A stretch of DNA of 64,000 bases, taken from the IMG/VR virus record IMGVR_UViG_3300047678_000160, positions 1-64,000 of that record. One strand, 5' to 3'. Positions within the stretch are counted from its first letter, which is position 1, and each line of letters opens with the position of its first letter. The notes under the pieces were generated by a model. That model was not told the DNA's origin. It did not search any database and was given only the letters and a program-made list of their open reading frames with translations. The DNA comes from a virus. Shown in pieces: positions 10,739-49,059 of the stretch. The translations under genes and the position numbers were made by a program.

Positions 10739-11818
10739 TTAAAGCTTAGATAAAACTTGTTCAATTCTATCAATAATTGGGTCAGAAATGTCAAAATTAA
10801 CGTCAATTTTTGGTTTACAATAACACGTAACCTGTTGAATATCAAATAGGTTATGAGATTGATTATAGTTGTTTAAAGCATTGACTATGTGAGGATAGCA
10901 CTTCTTACAAGAGTGAGCCCTTATGGCTTGGATGCCGTCAACGCCGGTTATACACGAAACTGCCACTCTACAGTTGGTGTTTGGAGTCAACGTGTGTATC
11001 TCTTCAACAGCACGAAGCAGTTCCCACAGGGTAGGTGGGAAATAGAGGTTGTTTTGGTGAAGAACATCAACCAATGTGTGTTTTGAAATACGCATTGGAC
11101 ATATTATAGGATTGTCCACTCCAATCTTGTGCAATTCAGACACGCCTTTCGATAAATCGACAATAGATTCGTTGACGGTTAAGAAGGCTGGTTTGAACAT
11201 TAAAAATACTTGGGGGATGTAGCCGAATTCTTTTAACAACTCAATTGATTTCAAAAAAGCCTTTTTGGTGCAAGTTGAATTGATTGCATACTCTCTAACC
11301 GTATCGTCCCATGATTGGAGCCCAATGGCCACCTGAACGATTTTGTCTCCCATTAGTTCTTTTGCACTTTGAAGCTTTTCTCTTGTGATAAATTGTGGAA
11401 GAGTTTCGACTATCAGATATTTGTAAGGAGATTGAGCCATCTTACGATATATGTAGCGTCTGAGGTCTTCTGAAATTTCTTTATCTGCGAAAAAATTTCC
11501 GTTATGATAGAGAGTTAAAACATCCAATCCCTCTGCGTTAACAAAAGCTCCATCAATTTGATTTTTTAGATTCTGCTCTGTCACTTCAACATCATCCGGA
11601 ACAGATTCATCTGGCAAAGGACACATGGTGCAAGTCGATACACAACATCCATGCGCCGTCAGAACAACTCGTCGTCTTTTGAGAGCCCCCTTACCGTCAA
11701 CAATAACATCTTCAAGAGTAGATTGTGGAACATCGACCGAATCGCCATAATCGTATTCGTTCTTTCGTAGGTTTCTGACCAGTCTGGTCAGGTGTGACTT
11801 TAGGTTAGATGAATTCAT
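10739..11818 (-). CDS. Radical SAM enzyme, RaSEA/Elp3-like
   Basis: A 359-residue protein from ATG 11818 (a start at 11860 would add 14 residues and deepen the overlap with the upstream gene). The [4Fe-4S] cluster motif is C59-x3-C63-x2-C66 within HGCCVSTCTMCPLPDES. Downstream elements, including VLTLYHNGNFF, YLIVETLPQFITREKL, QVAIGLQSWDDTVRE, VFLMFKPAFLT and LYFPPTLWELLRAVEEI, run in the same order as in the archaeal RaSEA (TIGR01210-type) family that acts with ArcS in archaeosine synthesis. Extra C-terminal Cys pairs (SCKKCYP, CYC) could hold a second metal. Last gene of the NAD-related operon. Substrate in a phage is unknown; tRNA, DNA or a nucleotide are all possible. Confidence 0.75.
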   Translation of the reverse strand: MNSSNLKSHLTRLVRNLRKNEYDYGDSVDVPQSTLEDVIVDGKGALKRRRVVLTAHGCCVSTCTMCPLPDESVPDDVEVTEQNLKNQIDGAFVNAEGLDVLTLYHNGNFFADKEISEDLRRYIYRKMAQSPYKYLIVETLPQFITREKLQSAKELMGDKIVQVAIGLQSWDDTVREYAINSTCTKKAFLKSIELLKEFGYIPQVFLMFKPAFLTVNESIVDLSKGVSELHKIGVDNPIICPMRISKHTLVDVLHQNNLYFPPTLWELLRAVEEIHTLTPNTNCRVAVSCITGVDGIQAIRAHSCKKCYPHIVNALNNYNQSHNLFDIQQVTCYCKPKIDVNFDISDPIIDRIEQVLSKL

Positions 11819-12413
11819 AGTGAATATTTTTGACCGATTCCTTATAAACGGATGATTCAATTATTTTGAGACACTTTAATTCGTTTTCTCTAAACTGAGA
11901 GTCAATGATTGAAACAACCGAATCGGAATAAATTGGAGCGTCGTCAAATTTATCCATCCACACCGGGTCGAATTGAAACAGCCCCAGGCGGCTCAATTGC
12001 CACGCCGCAGTTAGAAGACAGCATTTGTAGTGTGTATTTCCCGTTTCGCTATATTCACTCTTTAAGGCAATCTTCAATCCGTCATAATTCAAAAACGTTA
12101 CTTTTCGAGTGCTTCTGTCAAATGACTCTACGGATAAATATTCCGGAGGAATTGCTTGAAGCAGCTTTTCAGCATTTTTCGTCAAAGAAGATTCATAGAC
12201 TACCATTGAAATTTTTACACTGTGAGTCAATTCAAGAATCTTCACAAAATCTTCCAAACGAATGTCCCATTTTTCTGAATTGTAATCATCTAACATAATA
12301 GACAATGTATCTCCGTCTTTCACTATTTCCTTCATACGAAGAATGGAGCGGTGGTGAATTTCCGACAAACGCTCATCCGCATAAACGTGAGCAACTTCGA
12401 TATTACGAGGCAT
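11805..12413 (-). CDS. Unknown protein coupled to radical SAM gene
   Basis: A 202-residue protein, mixed alpha/beta, with no motif I recognise. It contains a small Cys pair (KCCLLTAAWQL) in the second half. Its ATG overlaps the end of the NadD-PRT fusion gene by 11 nt, and its end overlaps the radical SAM start, so all three are translated together. This makes it a candidate partner or adaptor of that enzyme. Confidence 0.6.
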   Translation of the reverse strand: MPRNIEVAHVYADERLSEIHHRSILRMKEIVKDGDTLSIMLDDYNSEKWDIRLEDFVKILELTHSVKISMVVYESSLTKNAEKLLQAIPPEYLSVESFDRSTRKVTFLNYDGLKIALKSEYSETGNTHYKCCLLTAAWQLSRLGLFQFDPVWMDKFDDAPIYSDSVVSIIDSQFRENELKCLKIIESSVYKESVKNIHYEFI

Positions 12414-13791
12414 AAGACCTCCCCAATAAATCCATGTGACAAGTTAATATTGGCGCCAAAGCGGTTTCTTCGGAAGAACCAACAGCTTTCATTAACTTGA
12501 TAAATCCTCCAAACATATTCTTCAATTGAATATTTGGGGACACTTCTCTATAATATTCTACGTTGGCTCTGTAGATTTCATATGAAGCCACTCTCTCTTC
12601 ATTTAATTTCGCTCGTGATGACAAACTGACGTATGGCAAACAATACGGAGCCTTGGCGATGGTTCCATCAAACAATCTTACAGTTAGACCAGATTGATAA
12701 CTTCCAATGAGGAAATCTCTCATATCAACAACGTCGTATATCTTTTCACCAGTTTGGTTGAACAACAATATGACTTCCGTTATGTTTATACCTCTCTTAC
12801 TTAAAAGTGATTTGATTCTTCGAATTGTTTCCCCTGTGGCAGAGTCGTCTTCCACCAAAACGTAATCTCCTTTTGGAATTCTCTTGATTTGGGTTAAGAT
12901 GGATTCTTTAGAACGTGAAATCAATTTTTTGGAGCGCAGCTGGCCATCACAAACATCAAATAACCTTGTCAGCTCAATGTCGTGATTACCTTTAAAATGG
13001 ACATCGAGGCTGATACATTTTCTTCCGTTGAGTTTCTTTCTGGCCTTTTCTATTTGTTCTGCGGCATCTTGAATTTCAACACATACATTTTCAGGAACAC
13101 GTTCCTGAATTAATTTTTGTATTGTTTTTGTGAATCTATCCAAAGCTTCTGTCTTTGGAACTAAAAATTCCAAATCATTGCGAATGATATATTTTGACTT
13201 TTCTTGTATAGGCTTCTCTTTCACCAATTTTCGAATATCAGTAGATTGTTTATTTAGATGCTCTCCACCTTTAACGTAAACAACGTTTTGAAACTGTATG
13301 TCTTTATCAGATTCAAATGAATCTTTGGCGATTCCTCTTTCCACACAAACACCAATATTTTCTTCGGTGAGCATCATGCTGAAATAAGACTTATCTGAGC
13401 CATACACGTAAGCGATTGTTGTTTTGTAAGGAAGTTGTCCTTTGATTCTTTTTATTACCTTGGTAAAGAACTGGTCAACGTCATAATAAACGCTTGTCTT
13501 ATCTATCATAAGCCAGTCAATATTCTCTACGATTTTCTCGCACGCAGAAATTCTATCTGCGTCGGATATGTATGAATCAATTGATTTTTCTTTTAAATAA
13601 ACTCGATTGTCAGGTGACATGTAGCCGCCGATGACTTCTCGACCAGATTCTTCCAATTTTTTCTTGGCCAAAATCATCATTTCTACGTGACCTTCGTGAA
13701 TCGGTGCAAACGCGCCCGTAGACAACAAAACAACTGGATAATCAGTTGTTGGTTGAGATAATTTATTTGTTGGTAAAACCAATTCGTTCAT
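12403..13791 (-). CDS. Fusion of NadD-like nucleotidyltransferase and type I phosphoribosyltransferase
   Basis: A 462-residue protein from ATG 13791, chosen because it overlaps the nadE stop as ATGA. The N-terminal domain (about 18-195) has the adenylyltransferase signature STGAFAPIHEGH at 24-35, and STDIRKL near 183 in the position of the ISxTxxR motif. The C-terminal domain (about 235-400) has the PRPP-binding loop VLVEDDSATGET at 311-322, diagnostic of type I phosphoribosyltransferases. The first domain would adenylate a mononucleotide such as NaMN; the second would join a base to PRPP. The combination in one chain, next to NadE and NAMPT, suggests an NAD or NAD-like nucleotide pathway. 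The base used is unknown. Confidence 0.75.
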   Translation of the reverse strand: MNELVLPTNKLSQPTTDYPVVLLSTGAFAPIHEGHVEMMILAKKKLEESGREVIGGYMSPDNRVYLKEKSIDSYISDADRISACEKIVENIDWLMIDKTSVYYDVDQFFTKVIKRIKGQLPYKTTIAYVYGSDKSYFSMMLTEENIGVCVERGIAKDSFESDKDIQFQNVVYVKGGEHLNKQSTDIRKLVKEKPIQEKSKYIIRNDLEFLVPKTEALDRFTKTIQKLIQERVPENVCVEIQDAAEQIEKARKKLNGRKCISLDVHFKGNHDIELTRLFDVCDGQLRSKKLISRSKESILTQIKRIPKGDYVLVEDDSATGETIRRIKSLLSKRGINITEVILLFNQTGEKIYDVVDMRDFLIGSYQSGLTVRLFDGTIAKAPYCLPYVSLSSRAKLNEERVASYEIYRANVEYYREVSPNIQLKNMFGGFIKLMKAVGSSEETALAPILTCHMDLLGRSYAS

Positions 13792-14789
13792 CGTAACTTT
13801 TCCAACAACTTCTTTAAAAATGGAGTCGGAGCTCCCCATTTACCGGGAACTTTGTTCGTAATTACGTCCAAATGAACCGCAGGCGACCCAGATAGATATT
13901 TGTGAAGATTATACTTGTGAAGGTTTTCGAGATTCGCAGAGTATTTTTCAAAATAATTTCTTCCTTCTTCATCCAACGTATCTAAAAACCTCAGTTGATT
14001 GGATTTATTATAAGATAGATAGGTCAAATAGAGTTCCACAAAATCATACGGAGCACCAAATACATCAACATCAATTCGACCATCATACATGTCTCCCGTT
14101 GGAGCAGTATTCAGAATAGCGTCTGGAATTTCCATTTTGGAAGAAATTTCATAGACTTCACTTTTATGTAAGTCTGAAATAAGCTGAACATCAACCATTC
14201 CATCGCTTGCCTTTCCAACATATCCGAGATAAGCTCCTTCGTCCTTGTTAGTGGTTCCACAAATTATGGATGGTGTTCCTTCTTGGGACAGTAGGCTAGC
14301 GATATAATAGAGGGTTGGAGTCCTTGTGTAAGGAACCAACTGTCCCTCGGCCCATTTTTCACCAACAATTCCGATGCCCGAATCAACTGATTTTTTGATG
14401 GATTCGACCGATTTTTTGACATTGATAATGATGGGGGCCAGACCAAATTTGGCACACACCAGTTTACCTCTATCCGTCGCGTCTTGTTGGCCGGTAACTC
14501 CTTTAGAAGATAAATCCGGTAAAAGAACCGGAACAATCTTTTTGATAGGACTGTTAGGCCACTTTGAAGCGCGGTGAACTATTCCAAGAACAGCCGCGGA
14601 GTCAATCCCTCCACTCACCGCGACAATACAGGCGGAGAGCTTGAAATGTCTCATGTATTCATTTAACAAGCTACATTTTCGGTCAAGATATTGAGTCGAT
14701 TTGAAATGCCTGTCACTCCTCATGGAACACAGTTGGAGCCAAAGCATTTCTCCCAACTCAAGGTCGGAAAAGGAATTGTAAACTTTCAT
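13788..14789 (-). CDS. nadE: NAD+ synthetase
   Basis: A 333-residue N-type ATP pyrophosphatase. The P-loop is VAVSGGIDSAAV (SGGIDS at 59-64). Family elements include SIICGTTNKDEGAYLGYVGK, DVQLISDLHKSEVYEI and the acidic segment DGRIDVDVFGAPYDF. It converts deamido-NAD to NAD using ATP and ammonia; no glutaminase domain is fused. Both ends overlap neighbours by 4 nt (ATGA), so it is translationally coupled in the NAD operon. Preiss-Handler-type synthesis would need a NaMN adenylyltransferase, plausibly the next gene. Confidence 0.85.
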   Translation of the reverse strand: MKVYNSFSDLELGEMLWLQLCSMRSDRHFKSTQYLDRKCSLLNEYMRHFKLSACIVAVSGGIDSAAVLGIVHRASKWPNSPIKKIVPVLLPDLSSKGVTGQQDATDRGKLVCAKFGLAPIIINVKKSVESIKKSVDSGIGIVGEKWAEGQLVPYTRTPTLYYIASLLSQEGTPSIICGTTNKDEGAYLGYVGKASDGMVDVQLISDLHKSEVYEISSKMEIPDAILNTAPTGDMYDGRIDVDVFGAPYDFVELYLTYLSYNKSNQLRFLDTLDEEGRNYFEKYSANLENLHKYNLHKYLSGSPAVHLDVITNKVPGKWGAPTPFLKKLLEKLR

Positions 14790-14998
14790 CGGTCAGGCCA
14801 AGGCTCGTAAGTAGCTTGATGAAATTCCTGAGCCGCCCTACGAATTGCGTCGTCGGAATAGGCTCGTTCATCATCACTCATGGGCTTATCGTCCCAGACG
14901 CGGGTGTTGCTACGGATAACTTCGTTGAATTTTTGTGCAGCAACCTTTCGCGTGTGAGAACGAAAGGCTCCAGCATCTTCTTCTGAACTTCTGCTCAT
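14786..14998 (-). CDS. Small charged protein
   Basis: A 70-residue, Arg/Asp/Glu-rich protein, probably helical. ATGA overlaps at both ends place it firmly in the NAD operon. No motif recognised. Confidence 0.55.
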   Translation of the reverse strand: MSRSSEEDAGAFRSHTRKVAAQKFNEVIRSNTRVWDDKPMSDDERAYSDDAIRRAAQEFHQATYEPWPDR

Positions 14999-15294
14999 TG
15001 GAATATAGGGGTTGTTTTAAAGCCGGTTGGCTTTGTTTCTGAATGTGAAGTGCTTTGTGTTAGACCACAGACCGAGCACGTTCTCTGCCAACGGTCTTCC
15101 GTTCTAGCCGAGACGTAGCATGGGCCTCTCCAATCAACTCCCATTGTTCCGGGCTCATCGCCTGGAATAGTGTAAGACGGATGGTAAATGTGATTCGCCA
15201 CAATTTCACTCCATTTGTGTTGGCAACGGCTCTGCTCCTCTTTCAAGGAGCGGAGCTCGTCGTCTAACTTGTTAATTTTGAGTTGTGTGTTCAC
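14995..15294 (-). CDS. Small protein with coiled coil and Cys/His cluster
   Basis: A 99-residue protein starting with GTG (overlapping the NAMPT stop as GTGA). Residues 5-25 are coiled-coil-like; C24/H26 and the later TCSVCG form a possible zinc site. The function is unknown; conserved coupling with NAMPT and NadE suggests a role in the same process. Confidence 0.55.
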   Translation of the reverse strand: MNTQLKINKLDDELRSLKEEQSRCQHKWSEIVANHIYHPSYTIPGDEPGTMGVDWRGPCYVSARTEDRWQRTCSVCGLTQSTSHSETKPTGFKTTPIFQ

Positions 15295-16682
15295 AGCTTT
15301 GCGTTTTCACGAATTTCAGAGAAATTCTGGTCGCGGAGAAGAAGTCCGTTTTCATAGACAACTTCGAGCTGGTCGATGAGGTCTTCGAGATTCAAGCTCG
15401 AAATGGTCTTATATTCCTCGCCAACTTTGACGAGGGCCAAGCGACCACGCTTAGAAGCCTTGCTCTTTTCCTTTGGGTTCTTGAAAATATCAACCCAAGC
15501 TCCATTCTGCTTCTGAGCGCAGCACTTGAAAGCGAAGCGCTGGGTGTCGCGGTTGACCTTCTGTAGAAGGCCGCCGCCCATACCAAAGACCATGTTCTCA
15601 GCCGACCAGCCGTTCACCATGAGCATCCCGAGGATACCACGGATTCCGTCAATGTCGATACCATCACCCCACAGAAGGCGAACCTTTGGGTTGAGAACAC
15701 GATAGCCCTTGCTGTTCTTGGTGTAACCAAATTTCTTACCGAGAATATCGATGAGCTTGATGGTCACTTCCTCAGGGTCGCCCGAATCGGGACGAACAAC
15801 GAATACACCATCGCGGGCCAGAATGGCTTCACGGTGAACCTCACCGAGATACTTACTAACATGGCGCTCGTCGTCATAACTGTCACAAACGACCGAGAGA
15901 ATGCCCGTAGGATACTGTTCAAGCAGCTGGCCAATTACGTCACACTCACCATCAGGGCCACGAGCGGTCATGATGGAGTGTTCTGTAGCAGGAACGCTGT
16001 AAGCGAGTCCTTCCAAAGAAGCGTTGTAATAATTAACCGCGTCAATCATGGCCTGAATTGTGTCAGTTCCCATGAAATTTACCAAGTGAGCATTGCCACC
16101 GGCACCAGCCGATTCAACGCTCGACACGCCACGATAACCAAAGTCATGAAGCATGAAGTTGATGCCACCCGGATTGTCCGAGGTGCGGTCAAGATAATGC
16201 TTGAAAATTTTCTTGGTTTCACGGCTCAGAGTGGCAACCGTCGAAGGATACCAAACGTGGGTCAGAAGGTCTTCGAGGTGGCCGACAAGAAAGGCCGTCT
16301 TTGGGCCGCCCAAATTTTCAATGGTCATAAGAACATTGCTAACCGGAACAACGGAACCTTCACGAACTGCCTTGATGCGAACCGGCAGAACTCCACCGAA
16401 TTCACTCAAGATATATTCCCAACCAGCGCGGTTGAAAATCTTGTCGTTGGCCATGTGAACTTTGGAAAGAAGAGCAGCCTCTTCAATTTTTTCGCGGGTC
16501 ACGACATGGCCGACCAGATACTTCTTCAAGATACGCTGTAATCCGAAGAAAACAGTGGTATCGAAGCGAGCACCCTTGCGGGACTCAAAATAAGAGAGAA
16601 TAATCTCAACCCCGTTCACCTGCATATTGTGGTGGCCGAGCTTGTAGCTATCCGTCATTAAACAAATGTTATATTCATTCAT
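15291..16682 (-). CDS. nampt: Nicotinamide phosphoribosyltransferase
   Basis: I chose ATG 16682 (MNEYNICLMTDSYKLGHH), which aligns with the usual NAMPT start; a TTG at 16715 would add 11 residues and run into the upstream gene. The 463-residue product is full length. Key family elements: SYFESRKGARF near 30, the catalytic His in PATEHSIMT at about 235, VVRPDSGDP near 295 for PRPP/nicotinamide binding, and FGMGGGLLQKVNRDTQ near the C-terminus. It makes NMN from nicotinamide and PRPP. With the adjacent NMN adenylyltransferase it completes the two-step NAD salvage route described in phages as NARP2, which rebuilds NAD after NAD-depleting defences. Confidence 0.93.
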   Translation of the reverse strand: MNEYNICLMTDSYKLGHHNMQVNGVEIILSYFESRKGARFDTTVFFGLQRILKKYLVGHVVTREKIEEAALLSKVHMANDKIFNRAGWEYILSEFGGVLPVRIKAVREGSVVPVSNVLMTIENLGGPKTAFLVGHLEDLLTHVWYPSTVATLSRETKKIFKHYLDRTSDNPGGINFMLHDFGYRGVSSVESAGAGGNAHLVNFMGTDTIQAMIDAVNYYNASLEGLAYSVPATEHSIMTARGPDGECDVIGQLLEQYPTGILSVVCDSYDDERHVSKYLGEVHREAILARDGVFVVRPDSGDPEEVTIKLIDILGKKFGYTKNSKGYRVLNPKVRLLWGDGIDIDGIRGILGMLMVNGWSAENMVFGMGGGLLQKVNRDTQRFAFKCCAQKQNGAWVDIFKNPKEKSKASKRGRLALVKVGEEYKTISSLNLEDLIDQLEVVYENGLLLRDQNFSEIRENAKL

Positions 16683-16707
16683 GGTATTATTGGTTTTCAG
16701 CTTATCA

Positions 16708-17661
16708 TTAAACAACCGAAATTTTATAGTGCTTCTTTAGGTAGGCACCTAACAGCTTGAACAAAGGACGATGTTCAGGAACAATGTCCTCGATGGTCAG
16801 TTCATCCTCAAGATTGAACCAACGGACTTCTGCAATATCATCAGCAGCCTTAGCCGGGCCACTATGTTCGCTGGTGAGAGCGAGGTAAAGATGAGTGATG
16901 ATTTTGTCAGTCTCATTACGATAGCGCCAGTCGTCAATTTTCTTGCTGCCAACGTATTCGATGGTAGTAGGATTGGCATTTACGCCAGTCTCCTCCTCAA
17001 GTTCACGGACAGCCGCATCTTCGTAGGAGTCGTCGGTAGGATTTACAAACCCACCAACGAAACGATAAAGGTCTTCGTCCGACTTACGAGCCAGAAGAAT
17101 TTCCTTCTCTTCGACGTTTAGAACAGCAACGTCAACGGTGGCAATAGCCGCCGGATAACGCTGGTGCGTTCCCCAAATGACTCCCATACGAAAGTTTGGA
17201 TTCGACTGGGGAGCCTTAGCAACGTCCTTACGGATTTCGGTGCCAGAAATGTAACGAGTCGATACAAGCTCCCGGGTCGGAAATCCGCCCTTGTAGTGAG
17301 GAATGAACGAGTCACGGCTTCCATAAAGGACAGCCTTTTCACCAGGAGAAAGAAGGTCACGGATGTTGGAATCCAACGCCTTCGACCATTCAATGTCAGA
17401 AGCCTGGTCTTTTACATATCCAATGGTCAGATTCGGATATTTGTCGTGGGGGAAAGCCTCAAGCAGCATCTGCTTGCGGGGCTGAAAATCGAGGGGATTA
17501 TTAATCGTTCCCTTGACCGGCGATAGACCTAAGAAGATAAACACCTTCGGGTGGTCTTTTAAAACCGTCTCAATCAGTTCGATGTGAGCGGTGGTTGGGG
17601 TCGGCACCTGAAAACGGGCGACTACGACACCTACGTTGTAACTTTCTTTCTTGAGTTCCAT
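16708..17661 (-). CDS. nadM: Bifunctional NMN adenylyltransferase / Nudix hydrolase
   Basis: A 317-residue protein. The N-terminal domain (1-165) has VVVARFQVPTPTTAHIELI near 12-30 (the GRFQPxHxGH nucleotidyltransferase motif, with His to Thr/Ala changes toward the end) and ISGTEIR at 138-144. The C-terminal domain (170-317) has a Nudix box around 203-226, with AVRELEEETGV as its core; the first Glu position is Asp. It should form NAD from NMN and ATP, and the Nudix part probably hydrolyses ADP-ribose-type compounds. It is first of the NAD operon, 25 nt upstream of NAMPT. Confidence 0.9.
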   Translation of the reverse strand: MELKKESYNVGVVVARFQVPTPTTAHIELIETVLKDHPKVFIFLGLSPVKGTINNPLDFQPRKQMLLEAFPHDKYPNLTIGYVKDQASDIEWSKALDSNIRDLLSPGEKAVLYGSRDSFIPHYKGGFPTRELVSTRYISGTEIRKDVAKAPQSNPNFRMGVIWGTHQRYPAAIATVDVAVLNVEEKEILLARKSDEDLYRFVGGFVNPTDDSYEDAAVRELEEETGVNANPTTIEYVGSKKIDDWRYRNETDKIITHLYLALTSEHSGPAKAADDIAEVRWFNLEDELTIEDIVPEHRPLFKLLGAYLKKHYKISVV

Positions 17662-18933: not shown

Positions 18934-19122
18934 TCATGGGAGATTTGGGAATTCTGCGTTTCTTTTTTTGGCTAAAGCTCTTACTCTAGCGTATTCTTCA
19001 CCGTAATAATCTTCGGTGCTTTGTTCTACAACTAATTTTACATTGGTGCCAGACAAAGAGCGGTAGAGTTGAATTCTACCGCTCGATGTATAAGAAACAA
19101 AGTATTTAGAATGAGATTTCAT
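18934..19122 (-). CDS. Small hypothetical protein
   Basis: A 62-residue basic protein (many Lys, Arg, Tyr). Its start overlaps the last 17 nt of the RNA ligase gene, indicating co-translation. No motif recognised. Confidence 0.5.
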   Translation of the reverse strand: MKSHSKYFVSYTSSGRIQLYRSLSGTNVKLVVEQSTEDYYGEEYARVRALAKKRNAEFPNLP

Positions 19123-20122
19123 TGTTTAAAAACCAAGTTCTAGCAGCTTTGGTGATTTCTCCCTGAGCTTTCTTGAGGTCGATGCCAGACGCCTTGGCGG
19201 TATCTGCTTCTTCCTTTTCAATGTCGGTGGTAATCCACTTAATGAAATGGCCGAGAGAAGAGCGGTCGGTTTTATGACCAGCTTCACGAAGTTTGTCGAT
19301 TCCTTGACGGCAGCGATTTTCGGTCACGGTCTTTTCCGCAAATTCTCTCTGAGAAGCGACAAGCTCCACATCAACTGCGGCCAGGGTGTTCACCTTGGTC
19401 GCAGAATGTAGCTCGCCCTTGACCTTGAAGTAAAATTCAGGGCTTTCCCAGCCGGGAGTGACACATTTCCAAACAATCCCCTCTCCAACACCTTCAGCTC
19501 CATGAGCTTTAGCGACAGGGCAGGATTGTTCAACCTTGATGGTCAGTTCCACAAGCTTGTTACGAGCAATTTCAGGTGTGTTAAAATCGATGGATAGAGT
19601 TTCGTTTTGATAATCGTAAATGTTGTAAATACTTTCCTTCGGAGAACGAACCTTGGCCACAGCAGCTTTGTCAAGCCACTGTCCACCAACTTGAACGCCG
19701 AAGACCACAAATCTCTTTGGGAGTTTTGCAATAGCGACGTTTGGTTGAATGTTTCCTCCACACCATTCACCAAAGATGACTACAATTGCACTGTTGAAAC
19801 CGATTGCAGCTTCGTGAGTTAGAAAGTTGATAGCGTCAAGCTTATCATGAAAATGACGAGCGAATCCAGCGTTATCTTTCTCAACAGTAATGACGTTCTC
19901 ACGACTTTGAAACCAAATTTCTCCGGTCTGTAAATCCTTACAGATAGCTGCGTTGGTTCCGTGAAGTTTCACCGTTCCCTCATAAGTGAGGGTCGGAAGC
20001 GTTTTGGTATGGTCGTAAATTGGGTCGCCGTTCGTATCAACGCCGGCGTGTCGAGCCGCACAAGTTACCTTGTGAATGGCATTACGGTATTGCTCAATGG
20101 ATGGATATGGAATGTGTTTCAT
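19106..20122 (-). CDS. RNA ligase, T4 Rnl2 family
   Basis: A 338-residue protein. I chose ATG 20122 because GAGGAAAG lies just upstream; the TTG at 20137 overlaps that site. Nucleotidyltransferase motifs: I, KLHGTNAAI with nucleophile K52; IIIa, FGEWCGG 117-123; IV, EGIVWK 214-219; V, FKVKGE 232-237. Rnl2-type ligases seal 3'-OH/5'-phosphate nicks in RNA via AMP intermediates. With the kinase-like protein at 62183 and the HAD proteins it could form an RNA repair set against tRNA-cleaving defences. It heads the minus-strand block, driven by the promoter at 20137. Confidence 0.85.
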   Translation of the reverse strand: MKHIPYPSIEQYRNAIHKVTCAARHAGVDTNGDPIYDHTKTLPTLTYEGTVKLHGTNAAICKDLQTGEIWFQSRENVITVEKDNAGFARHFHDKLDAINFLTHEAAIGFNSAIVVIFGEWCGGNIQPNVAIAKLPKRFVVFGVQVGGQWLDKAAVAKVRSPKESIYNIYDYQNETLSIDFNTPEIARNKLVELTIKVEQSCPVAKAHGAEGVGEGIVWKCVTPGWESPEFYFKVKGELHSATKVNTLAAVDVELVASQREFAEKTVTENRCRQGIDKLREAGHKTDRSSLGHFIKWITTDIEKEEADTAKASGIDLKKAQGEITKAARTWFLNNEISF

Positions 20123-20136
20123 AGATACTTTCCTCA

Positions 20137-20164
20137 ATCATCCTCATTTTTATCAAAATGTCAA
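20137..20164 (-). promoter_or_regulatory. Sigma70-like promoter TTGACA-N16-GATGAT (minus strand)
   Basis: Perfect -35 at 20159-20164; weak -10 at 20137-20142, just upstream of the RNA ligase start. Confidence 0.5.
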
Positions 20165-48985: not shown

Positions 48986-49059
48986 GCGTTTGTAGCTCAA
49001 TGGCTGAGCAGTCGTCTCTAAAACGATGGATGTGGGTTCGAGTCCCATCTGACGCACCA
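48986..49059 (+). tRNA. tRNA with anticodon CUA (amber suppressor)
   Basis: 74 nt including encoded CCA. Acceptor GCGTTTG/CTGACGC (one T-T mismatch, one G-U), D-stem GCTC/GAGC, anticodon stem GTCGT/ACGAT closing a 7-nt loop CTCTAAA, T-stem GTGGG/CCCAT with loop TTCGAGT. U33 is present and positions 34-36 read CTA, so it should decode UAG. The D-loop is one nt short. Amino acid identity is not deducible by eye. TTGACA lies at 48937, but with only a weak -10. Confidence 0.85.

What the first reader, a model, noticed from the sequence alone, without database searches (positions are those of the whole stretch)
12403..13791. NadD-like domain fused to a type I phosphoribosyltransferase
One chain carries both a mononucleotide adenylyltransferase signature and a PRPP-binding loop (VLVEDDSATGET). 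Known nicotinate and nicotinamide phosphoribosyltransferases are of a different fold (type II). This fusion could turn a free base and PRPP directly into a dinucleotide, so its base may not be nicotinamide.
Basis: partly seen in the sequence, partly recalled or inferred. Interest (0 to 1): 0.72.

Follow-up and report, generated by a model that had tools for sequence, protein, structure and literature searches.

The report
NMNAT–phosphoribosyltransferase fusion in NAD-type cassette
This phage gene joins an NAD-making adenylyltransferase to a new, divergent type I phosphoribosyltransferase, and it belongs to a small mobile set of genes (NAD synthetase, the fusion, and an iron-dependent oxygenase or radical enzyme) shared by phages, plasmids and unrelated bacteria, which looks like an undescribed route to NAD or to an NAD-like molecule.

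Summary
The ORF at 12403-13791/13839 (- strand) encodes an NMNAT/NadD domain (predicted fold, Z 20 to NMN/NaMN adenylyltransferases) fused to a confidently modelled C-terminal domain. That domain has a PRPP loop, and its best structural neighbours are type I PRTases, though weakly (Z at most 7.1). The two domains are also fused in huge phages, Clostridia, candidate-phyla bacteria, Myxococcota and plasmids. The gene overlaps a NadE-like NAD synthetase by 4 bp and is followed by an orphan gene (u202) and a RaSEA-like radical SAM gene. In 28 loci where the NadE and the fusion co-occur, exactly one oxidative enzyme family is also present: 2OG-Fe(II) oxygenase (21), RaSEA-like (4) or MoaA-like radical SAM (3). 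NrtR-type NAD regulators flank three loci. Most sampled hosts also have ordinary NAD genes, so the cassette is usually accessory. Best reading: a carboxylate base plus PRPP is made into a mononucleotide, then a dinucleotide, then amidated by NadE, with an oxidative step. The base, and whether the product is plain NAD, are unknown. I found no description in the papers searched. The neighbouring NAMPT/NadM pair resembles known phage NAD salvage.

The parts
12403..13791 (-). NMNAT/NadD-type adenylyltransferase fused to a divergent type I PRTase domain (ATG at 13791 overlaps the NadE stop by 4 bp; a longer in-frame start exists at 13839)
13203..13746 (-). NMNAT/NadD domain, about residues 32-212: GAFAPIHEGH motif at residue 42, STDIR motif at residue 199
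12406..13203 (-). PRTase domain, about residues 213-478: PRPP loop VLVEDDSATGET at 327-338, family motif RDFxxG...APYxLPYVSLSSRA
13788..14789 (-). NadE-like NAD synthetase (cassette clade, NadE*), 333 aa, P-loop SGGIDSA
   Evidence: PF02540 94.8 bits vs 21; 48-58% identical to cassette NadE of Clostridia and CPR; tree
11805..12413 (-). u202: orphan 202-aa protein overlapping the fusion by 11 bp; homologues in huge phages with the fusion and directly after it on a Paenibacillus plasmid
10739..11860 (-). RaSEA-like radical SAM protein, CxxxCxxC; likely ATG start at 11818, overlapping u202
   Evidence: Radical_SAM 44.3 bits vs 29.5; TIGR01210 165 bits vs cut-off 212
15291..16715 (-). NAMPT/NadV, separate upstream operon; a distinct nicotinamide salvage route
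   Evidence: NAPRTase 152.7 bits, NAMPT_N 109 bits; phrog_448 E 2.9e-154
16708..17661 (-). NadM-type adenylyltransferase plus Nudix
   Evidence: NUDIX 72.7 bits; phrog_395 cytidyltransferase E 9e-14
14995..15294 (-). 99-aa Cys-containing ORF of unknown role between NAMPT and NadE

Best explanation
The protein is a two-domain enzyme: an N-terminal NMN/NaMN-type adenylyltransferase and a C-terminal divergent type I phosphoribosyltransferase. It is one part of a mobile cassette consisting of a dedicated NadE-like synthetase (NadE*), this fusion, and one oxidative enzyme. Inferred mechanism: (1) the PRTase joins a carboxylate-bearing base, probably nicotinate or a relative, to PRPP; (2) the NMNAT domain adenylylates the mononucleotide to a nicotinate-adenine-dinucleotide-like product; (3) NadE* activates and amidates the carboxylate; (4) a 2OG-Fe(II) oxygenase or radical SAM enzyme carries out an oxidative C-H or C-N step on the base or dinucleotide. 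The product is NAD or an NAD-like dinucleotide. In phages this would add to, or diversify, the NAD pool during infection beside NAMPT/NadM salvage. Shown: domains, folds, operon overlaps, co-conservation, exchange of the oxidative enzymes. Inferred: all substrates, step order and the biological role.
For: Domains and folds: NMNAT fold Z 20.3; PRTase model pLDDT 93.6 with type I PRTases as best neighbours; Foldseek against viral models picks the standalone ME3 phage protein encoded just upstream of that phage's NAD synthetase (E 1.7e-7, TM 0.58/0.71). Family: full-length relatives in phages and bacteria and on Variovorax, Leptospira, Streptomyces and Paenibacillus plasmids. Order nadE, 2OG-Fe(II) oxygenase, fusion in plasmids and Myxococcota; NadE*, oxygenase and fusion in a single chain in Paraliomyxa and two more myxococcal genomes, which argues for sequential reactions. 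All 28 complete loci carry exactly one oxidative family; the RaSEA-like type appears at two separate places in the NadE* tree, so the enzymes look interchangeable. NAD link: NrtR-type regulators (NrtR_WHD 96.8 and 33.3 bits vs 27) at L102 and L096, and a relative at L014. The window NadE* groups with cassette NadE (0.92-0.96) and away from the ordinary NadE.
Against: No activity shown. PRTase structural matches are weak (Z at most 7.1) and the sequence is below the Pfam cut-off. The window copy lacks the DPWE stretch most relatives keep in the NMNAT domain, so its base specificity or activity may differ. Mutual exclusivity of oxidative enzymes was scored only within the DNA held, except for the window virus, whose record was scanned for the oxygenase. 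The 28 loci include related groups (five huge phages, three Clostridia). Two of them, phages X1 and V45v66, join on architecture, motifs and context, not on a significant profile match (hhalign probability 5.6%).
Confidence: 0.5

Rival explanations
1. Plain Preiss-Handler route with a non-orthologous nicotinate PRTase: nicotinate to NaMN to NaAD to NAD, and the oxidative enzyme only supplies the base or does an unrelated job. The product is ordinary NAD.
For: NMNAT plus NadE plus NrtR regulators is the standard NaMN-to-NAD set. In the Curtissbacteria genome the fusion is the only NadD-like hit, NadE* the only NAD synthetase found, and no NAPRT or NadC was found.
Against: Most sampled hosts also carry an ordinary NAD synthetase, and several a separate NadD and/or NAPRT/NadC. 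An oxidative enzyme is kept in every complete cassette, although plain NAD synthesis from nicotinate needs none. The G005 genome may be incomplete.
Confidence: 0.25
2. A nucleotide natural product or signalling molecule, like the nucleoside-like metabolite proposed for PRTases of the Ter stress systems; NAD-family enzymes are reused and the product is not a redox cofactor.
For: Acinetobacter phage ME3 carries the standalone PRTase, a 2OG oxygenase and NadE beside Ter genes and a macro-domain gene, in a phage already noted for Ter PRTases (PMC7824862). Amino-acid racemases or LysA-like PLP enzymes accompany some cassettes. Plasmid location is common.
Against: NrtR regulators and the NMNAT/NadE pair point to NAD chemistry. 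No transporter or resistance gene is consistently present in the loci read.
Confidence: 0.15
3. The PRTase domain is catalytically dead or regulatory (a PRPP or nucleotide sensor, as in PyrR-like proteins), so the fusion is simply a regulated NadD.
For: Divergent from known PRTases; the acidic pair of the loop is altered (D-S-D) in the X1/V45v66 branch.
Against: The acidic pair, G and T of the PRPP loop and many other polar residues are invariant in the 14 core sequences, and phage ME3 keeps the domain standalone beside NadE and an oxygenase.
Confidence: 0.08

Closest known systems
Phage NAD+ salvage: NadV/NAMPT plus NadM-Nudix (described for jumbo phages, PMC7824862 and PMC9503650; the NARP2 label is from own knowledge)
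   Same: PRPP-dependent mononucleotide formation followed by adenylylation; both genes are present at 15291-17661 in this virus.
   Different: That pair uses a type II PRTase and nicotinamide and needs no NadE or oxidative enzyme. The fusion uses a type I-like PRTase in the same chain as the NMNAT and travels with NadE* and an oxidative enzyme.
Preiss-Handler pathway (PncB, NadD, NadE)
   Same: Order PRTase, NaMN adenylyltransferase, NAD synthetase; similar NMNAT and NadE families.
   Different: PncB is a type II PRTase and the steps are separate proteins; no oxygenase or radical SAM step; usually absent from mobile cassettes.
Ter-system and polyvalent-protein PRTases (PMC5512222; Anantharaman et al. 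2012, cited there, not read)
   Same: Divergent PRTases in phage and plasmid conflict settings, proposed to make a nucleotide metabolite; ME3 carries both.
   Different: No NMNAT-PRTase fusion or NadE partnership was found in the text searched there.
RaSEA of archaeosine synthesis (PMC11298593)
   Same: Window radical SAM matches TIGR01210 along its length; RaSEA acts in a complex after a partner has joined lysine to the base.
   Different: Below the family cut-off, with a different genomic partner; no ArcS seen beside it.

Membership tests
NMN/NaMN adenylyltransferase (NadD/NMNAT) | GxFxPxHxGH nucleotidyltransferase signature and STxxR-type motif | tested here: met
   GAFAPIHEGH at 42, STDIR at 199
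NMN/NaMN adenylyltransferase (NadD/NMNAT) | NMNAT fold | tested here: met
   Z 20.3, rmsd 2.6 over 180-182 residues to 9rpm/9rpk; Foldseek E 4.4e-9
NMN/NaMN adenylyltransferase (NadD/NMNAT) | Score above the TIGR00482 equivalog cut-off (112 bits) | tested here: not met
   Relatives L013 and L101 score 46-47 bits, the others in genomes 38.5-64 bits: a divergent subfamily. The window protein itself was not scanned against it.
NMN/NaMN adenylyltransferase (NadD/NMNAT) | Adenylylates NMN or NaMN | not testable with these tools
   Needs an enzyme assay
Type I phosphoribosyltransferase | PRPP loop with acidic pair followed by small residues and Gly/Thr | tested here: met
   YVLVEDDSATGET, 11 of 13 positions; invariant DD...G.T in 14 sequences
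Type I phosphoribosyltransferase | Type I PRTase fold | tested here: inconclusive
   Nearest structural neighbours are almost all type I PRTases but Z at most 7.1, residues 1-163 of the domain; plain Foldseek against PDB gave APRT only at rank 9, E 0.024
Type I phosphoribosyltransferase | Pfam Pribosyltran cut-off | tested here: not met
   12.1 bits vs 26.3
Type II NAPRT/NAMPT | PF04095/NAMPT_N domains | tested here: not met
   No hit in the fusion; the neighbouring NAMPT scores 152.7 bits in the same call
NAD synthetase NadE (upstream gene) | PF02540 domain above cut-off, SGGxDS P-loop | tested here: met
   94.8 bits vs 21; SGGIDSA
RaSEA (downstream radical SAM gene) | TIGR01210 cut-off 212 bits | tested here: not met
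   165.3 bits window, 194.1 L017, 195.8 L096, 167.3 L112
RaSEA (downstream radical SAM gene) | CxxxCxxC cluster motif | tested here: met
   CVSTCTMC at residue 73
Known phage NAD salvage (NAMPT plus NadM) | Both genes present in the virus | tested here: met
   15291-16715 and 16708-17661; counter-defence function not tested

The most novel reading that the evidence does not exclude
The cassette makes a chemically modified, NAD-like dinucleotide (an alternative cofactor or signal) through a type I PRTase-NMNAT fusion, a dedicated amidating NadE, and an oxidative step done interchangeably by 2OG-Fe(II) oxygenases or radical SAM enzymes. Phages and plasmids may carry it because the product escapes NAD-degrading immunity.
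Probability: 0.3. Interest if true: 0.92.

Novelty: new variant of a known kind. Interest (0 to 1): 0.72.

Why it matters
Known NAD PRTases (NAPRT, NAMPT, QPRT) are type II; a type I-like PRTase fused to an NMNAT and tied to NadE would be a new solution to pyridine nucleotide synthesis. The co-conserved oxidative step suggests chemistry beyond plain NAD. The cassette is small, sits on plasmids of culturable bacteria (Variovorax, Streptomyces), and can be tested directly. If it yields NAD or an NAD analogue during phage infection, it bears on how phages survive NAD-depleting immunity.

Tried and rejected
Direct searches for the fusion in isolate phages and a first single-sequence viral scan found nothing; a PRTase-domain query and then a two-sequence alignment opened the family. 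An alignment of X1/V45v66 found no viral relatives, and their C-terminal halves match the core PRTase profile only weakly. I considered the fusion as the host's sole NAD route: it fits one incomplete candidate-phyla genome, not the others. G476, near-complete in one contig, has NAPRT, NadC and a second NAD synthetase, although the fusion is its only NadD-like hit. Foldseek's top PDB rows for the PRTase domain are flavodiiron proteins with TM 0.15 and 13 A rmsd: discarded as spurious. PADLOC has no model for fusion, NadE*, u202 or the radical SAM protein; the oxygenase hits only a generic 2OG 'Cas-associated' model. No 2OG oxygenase was found anywhere in the 95.7 kb virus record (E up to 10, which supports the exchange). 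A PRPP-synthetase-like (NARP1-type ADPR-PP) reading was considered because PRPP synthetases also appear among the structural neighbours, but only one of their two domains is matched and the classic PRTase loop is present. An idea not pursued: that NadE* joins an amino acid to the base and the oxidative enzyme cleaves it, by analogy with ArcS/RaSEA; there is no direct evidence. Literature searches found no report of the fusion or cassette, but the library lacks most subscription papers, including the 2024 Nature paper on phage NAD reconstitution.

Full report
Observation. The ORF is real, intact and on the - strand, ending at 12403. The start at 13791 overlaps the stop of the upstream gene by 4 bp (ATGA); a longer start at 13839 is also possible. 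The N-terminal half is an NMN/NaMN adenylyltransferase: Pfam 28.3 bits over a cut-off of 21, phmmer E 1.9e-9 to 9rpk, and a fold match of Z 20.3 over 180-182 residues. The full-length model has pLDDT 84.4, pTM 0.82.

The C-terminal half carries YVLVEDDSATGET. By itself this motif is only suggestive (18 of 2000 shuffles reach the same score). Modelled alone from 14 relatives, the domain is very confident (pLDDT 93.6, pTM 0.89). Its nearest solved folds are nearly all type I PRTases, PRT-related proteins and PRPP synthetases, at Z up to 7.1 over residues 1-163 of the domain. It is therefore best called a divergent type I PRTase core with a roughly 100-residue C-terminal extension. Standalone relatives occur in candidate-phyla bacteria (hhalign 98.7%) and in Acinetobacter phage ME3 (Foldseek E 1.7e-7, TM 0.58/0.71).

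The fusion is a family. Starting from the PRTase domain and then an alignment, full-length relatives came from huge-phage contigs of 182-465 kb, three Clostridia, Peregrinibacteria, Curtissbacteria and two Myxococcota; further hits came from more Myxococcota and another candidate-phyla genome. Plasmids of Variovorax, Leptospira, Streptomyces and Paenibacillus also carry it, annotated as hypothetical proteins. Identity to the window protein is 27-39%. Most members have an extra N-terminal stretch that looks J-domain-like by eye; the window copy lacks it.

Operon in the window. NadE (13788-14789), fusion, u202 (11805-12413) and a RaSEA-like radical SAM gene (10739-11860) overlap one another in sequence. 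About 200 bp upstream lies a second group: NadM-Nudix, NAMPT and a 99-aa ORF. So this virus carries both a nicotinamide salvage pair of a kind known from jumbo phages (PMC7824862, PMC9503650) and the new cassette.

Partner enzymes. The cassette NadE (NadE*) is 39-58% identical to the window's among the core loci, against 27% for the ordinary NadE encoded in the same Clostridia locus L014, and forms a clade away from it. In Paraliomyxa and two other myxococcal genomes NadE*, a 2OG-Fe(II) oxygenase, the NMNAT and the PRTase are one polypeptide; in Peregrinibacteria NadE* and the oxygenase are fused. Scoring every locus where NadE* and the fusion co-occur, 28 of 28 carry exactly one oxidative family in the DNA held: 21 with a 2OG oxygenase, 4 with a RaSEA-like radical SAM protein, 3 with a MoaA-like radical SAM protein. 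The five huge phages have NadE* and the oxygenase roughly 10-15 kb from the fusion on the same contig. The window virus has no 2OG oxygenase in its 95.7 kb. The RaSEA-like type appears at two separate places in the NadE* tree, one holding the window and candidate-phyla sequences and one holding L112 (placed outside with support 0.97). This suggests the families replace one another, so the pathway contains an oxidative step that plain NAD synthesis from nicotinate does not need. Independence is limited, since the huge phages and the Clostridia each form one clade, and phages X1 and V45v66 join on architecture, motifs and context only.

NAD connection. NrtR-type regulators (NrtR_WHD 96.8 and 33.3 bits over 27) sit beside the Leptospira plasmid and G476 cassettes, and a relative lies near the L014 cassette. 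Racemases accompany three cassettes and a LysA-like PLP enzyme two.

Housekeeping or accessory? Most sampled host genomes also encode an ordinary NAD synthetase, and several a separate NadD and/or NAPRT/NadC. The Curtissbacteria genome is the exception: fusion and NadE* are the only NadD-like and NAD synthetase hits, and no NAPRT or NadC was found, in a draft genome.

Interpretation. What is shown: domains, predicted folds, gene overlaps, co-conservation, fusions in one chain, and exchange of oxidative enzymes. What is inferred: the PRTase charges a carboxylate base with PRPP, the NMNAT adenylylates it, NadE* amidates it, and the oxidative enzyme modifies the base or dinucleotide. The product is NAD or a relative. 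The window NMNAT has lost the DPWE stretch kept by most relatives, so its own specificity may differ.

Novelty. No held paper describes the fusion or the cassette, but many subscription papers are absent from the library, so novelty is stated with that limit.

Noticed in passing
48986-49059 +: ARAGORN calls a tRNA with anticodon CTA ('tRNA-Pyl'), the only tRNA in the window; a candidate amber-suppressor tRNA.
   Followed up: no
11805-12413 -; L007-L012; L104:13283-13912: u202 is an orphan protein without Pfam hit, conserved in the window virus, the huge phages with the fusion, and directly after the fusion on a Paenibacillus plasmid.
   Followed up: partly
virus record G000 86866-87357 and 89820-90314 (outside the window): By sequence reading, a macro-domain-like ORF and a NADAR/YbiA-like ORF, both plausible ADP-ribose handlers, in the same virus.
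   Followed up: no
14995-15294 -: 99-aa Cys/His-containing ORF, starting in a 4-bp overlap with the NAMPT stop; no family match.
   Followed up: no
L105, L106: NadD-like ORF paired with a phosphotransferase gene on Gordonia and Mycolicibacterium plasmids, without NadE or the PRTase domain seen.
   Followed up: no
L098, L099, L100: Standalone PRTase relatives in candidate-phyla bacteria, with GNAT, LOG-like, sugar-kinase-like or HAD-like ORFs nearby.
   Followed up: partly
19109-20137 -: ORF reading like an RNA ligase (TVKLHGTNAAICKDLQ) near the cassette.
   Followed up: no
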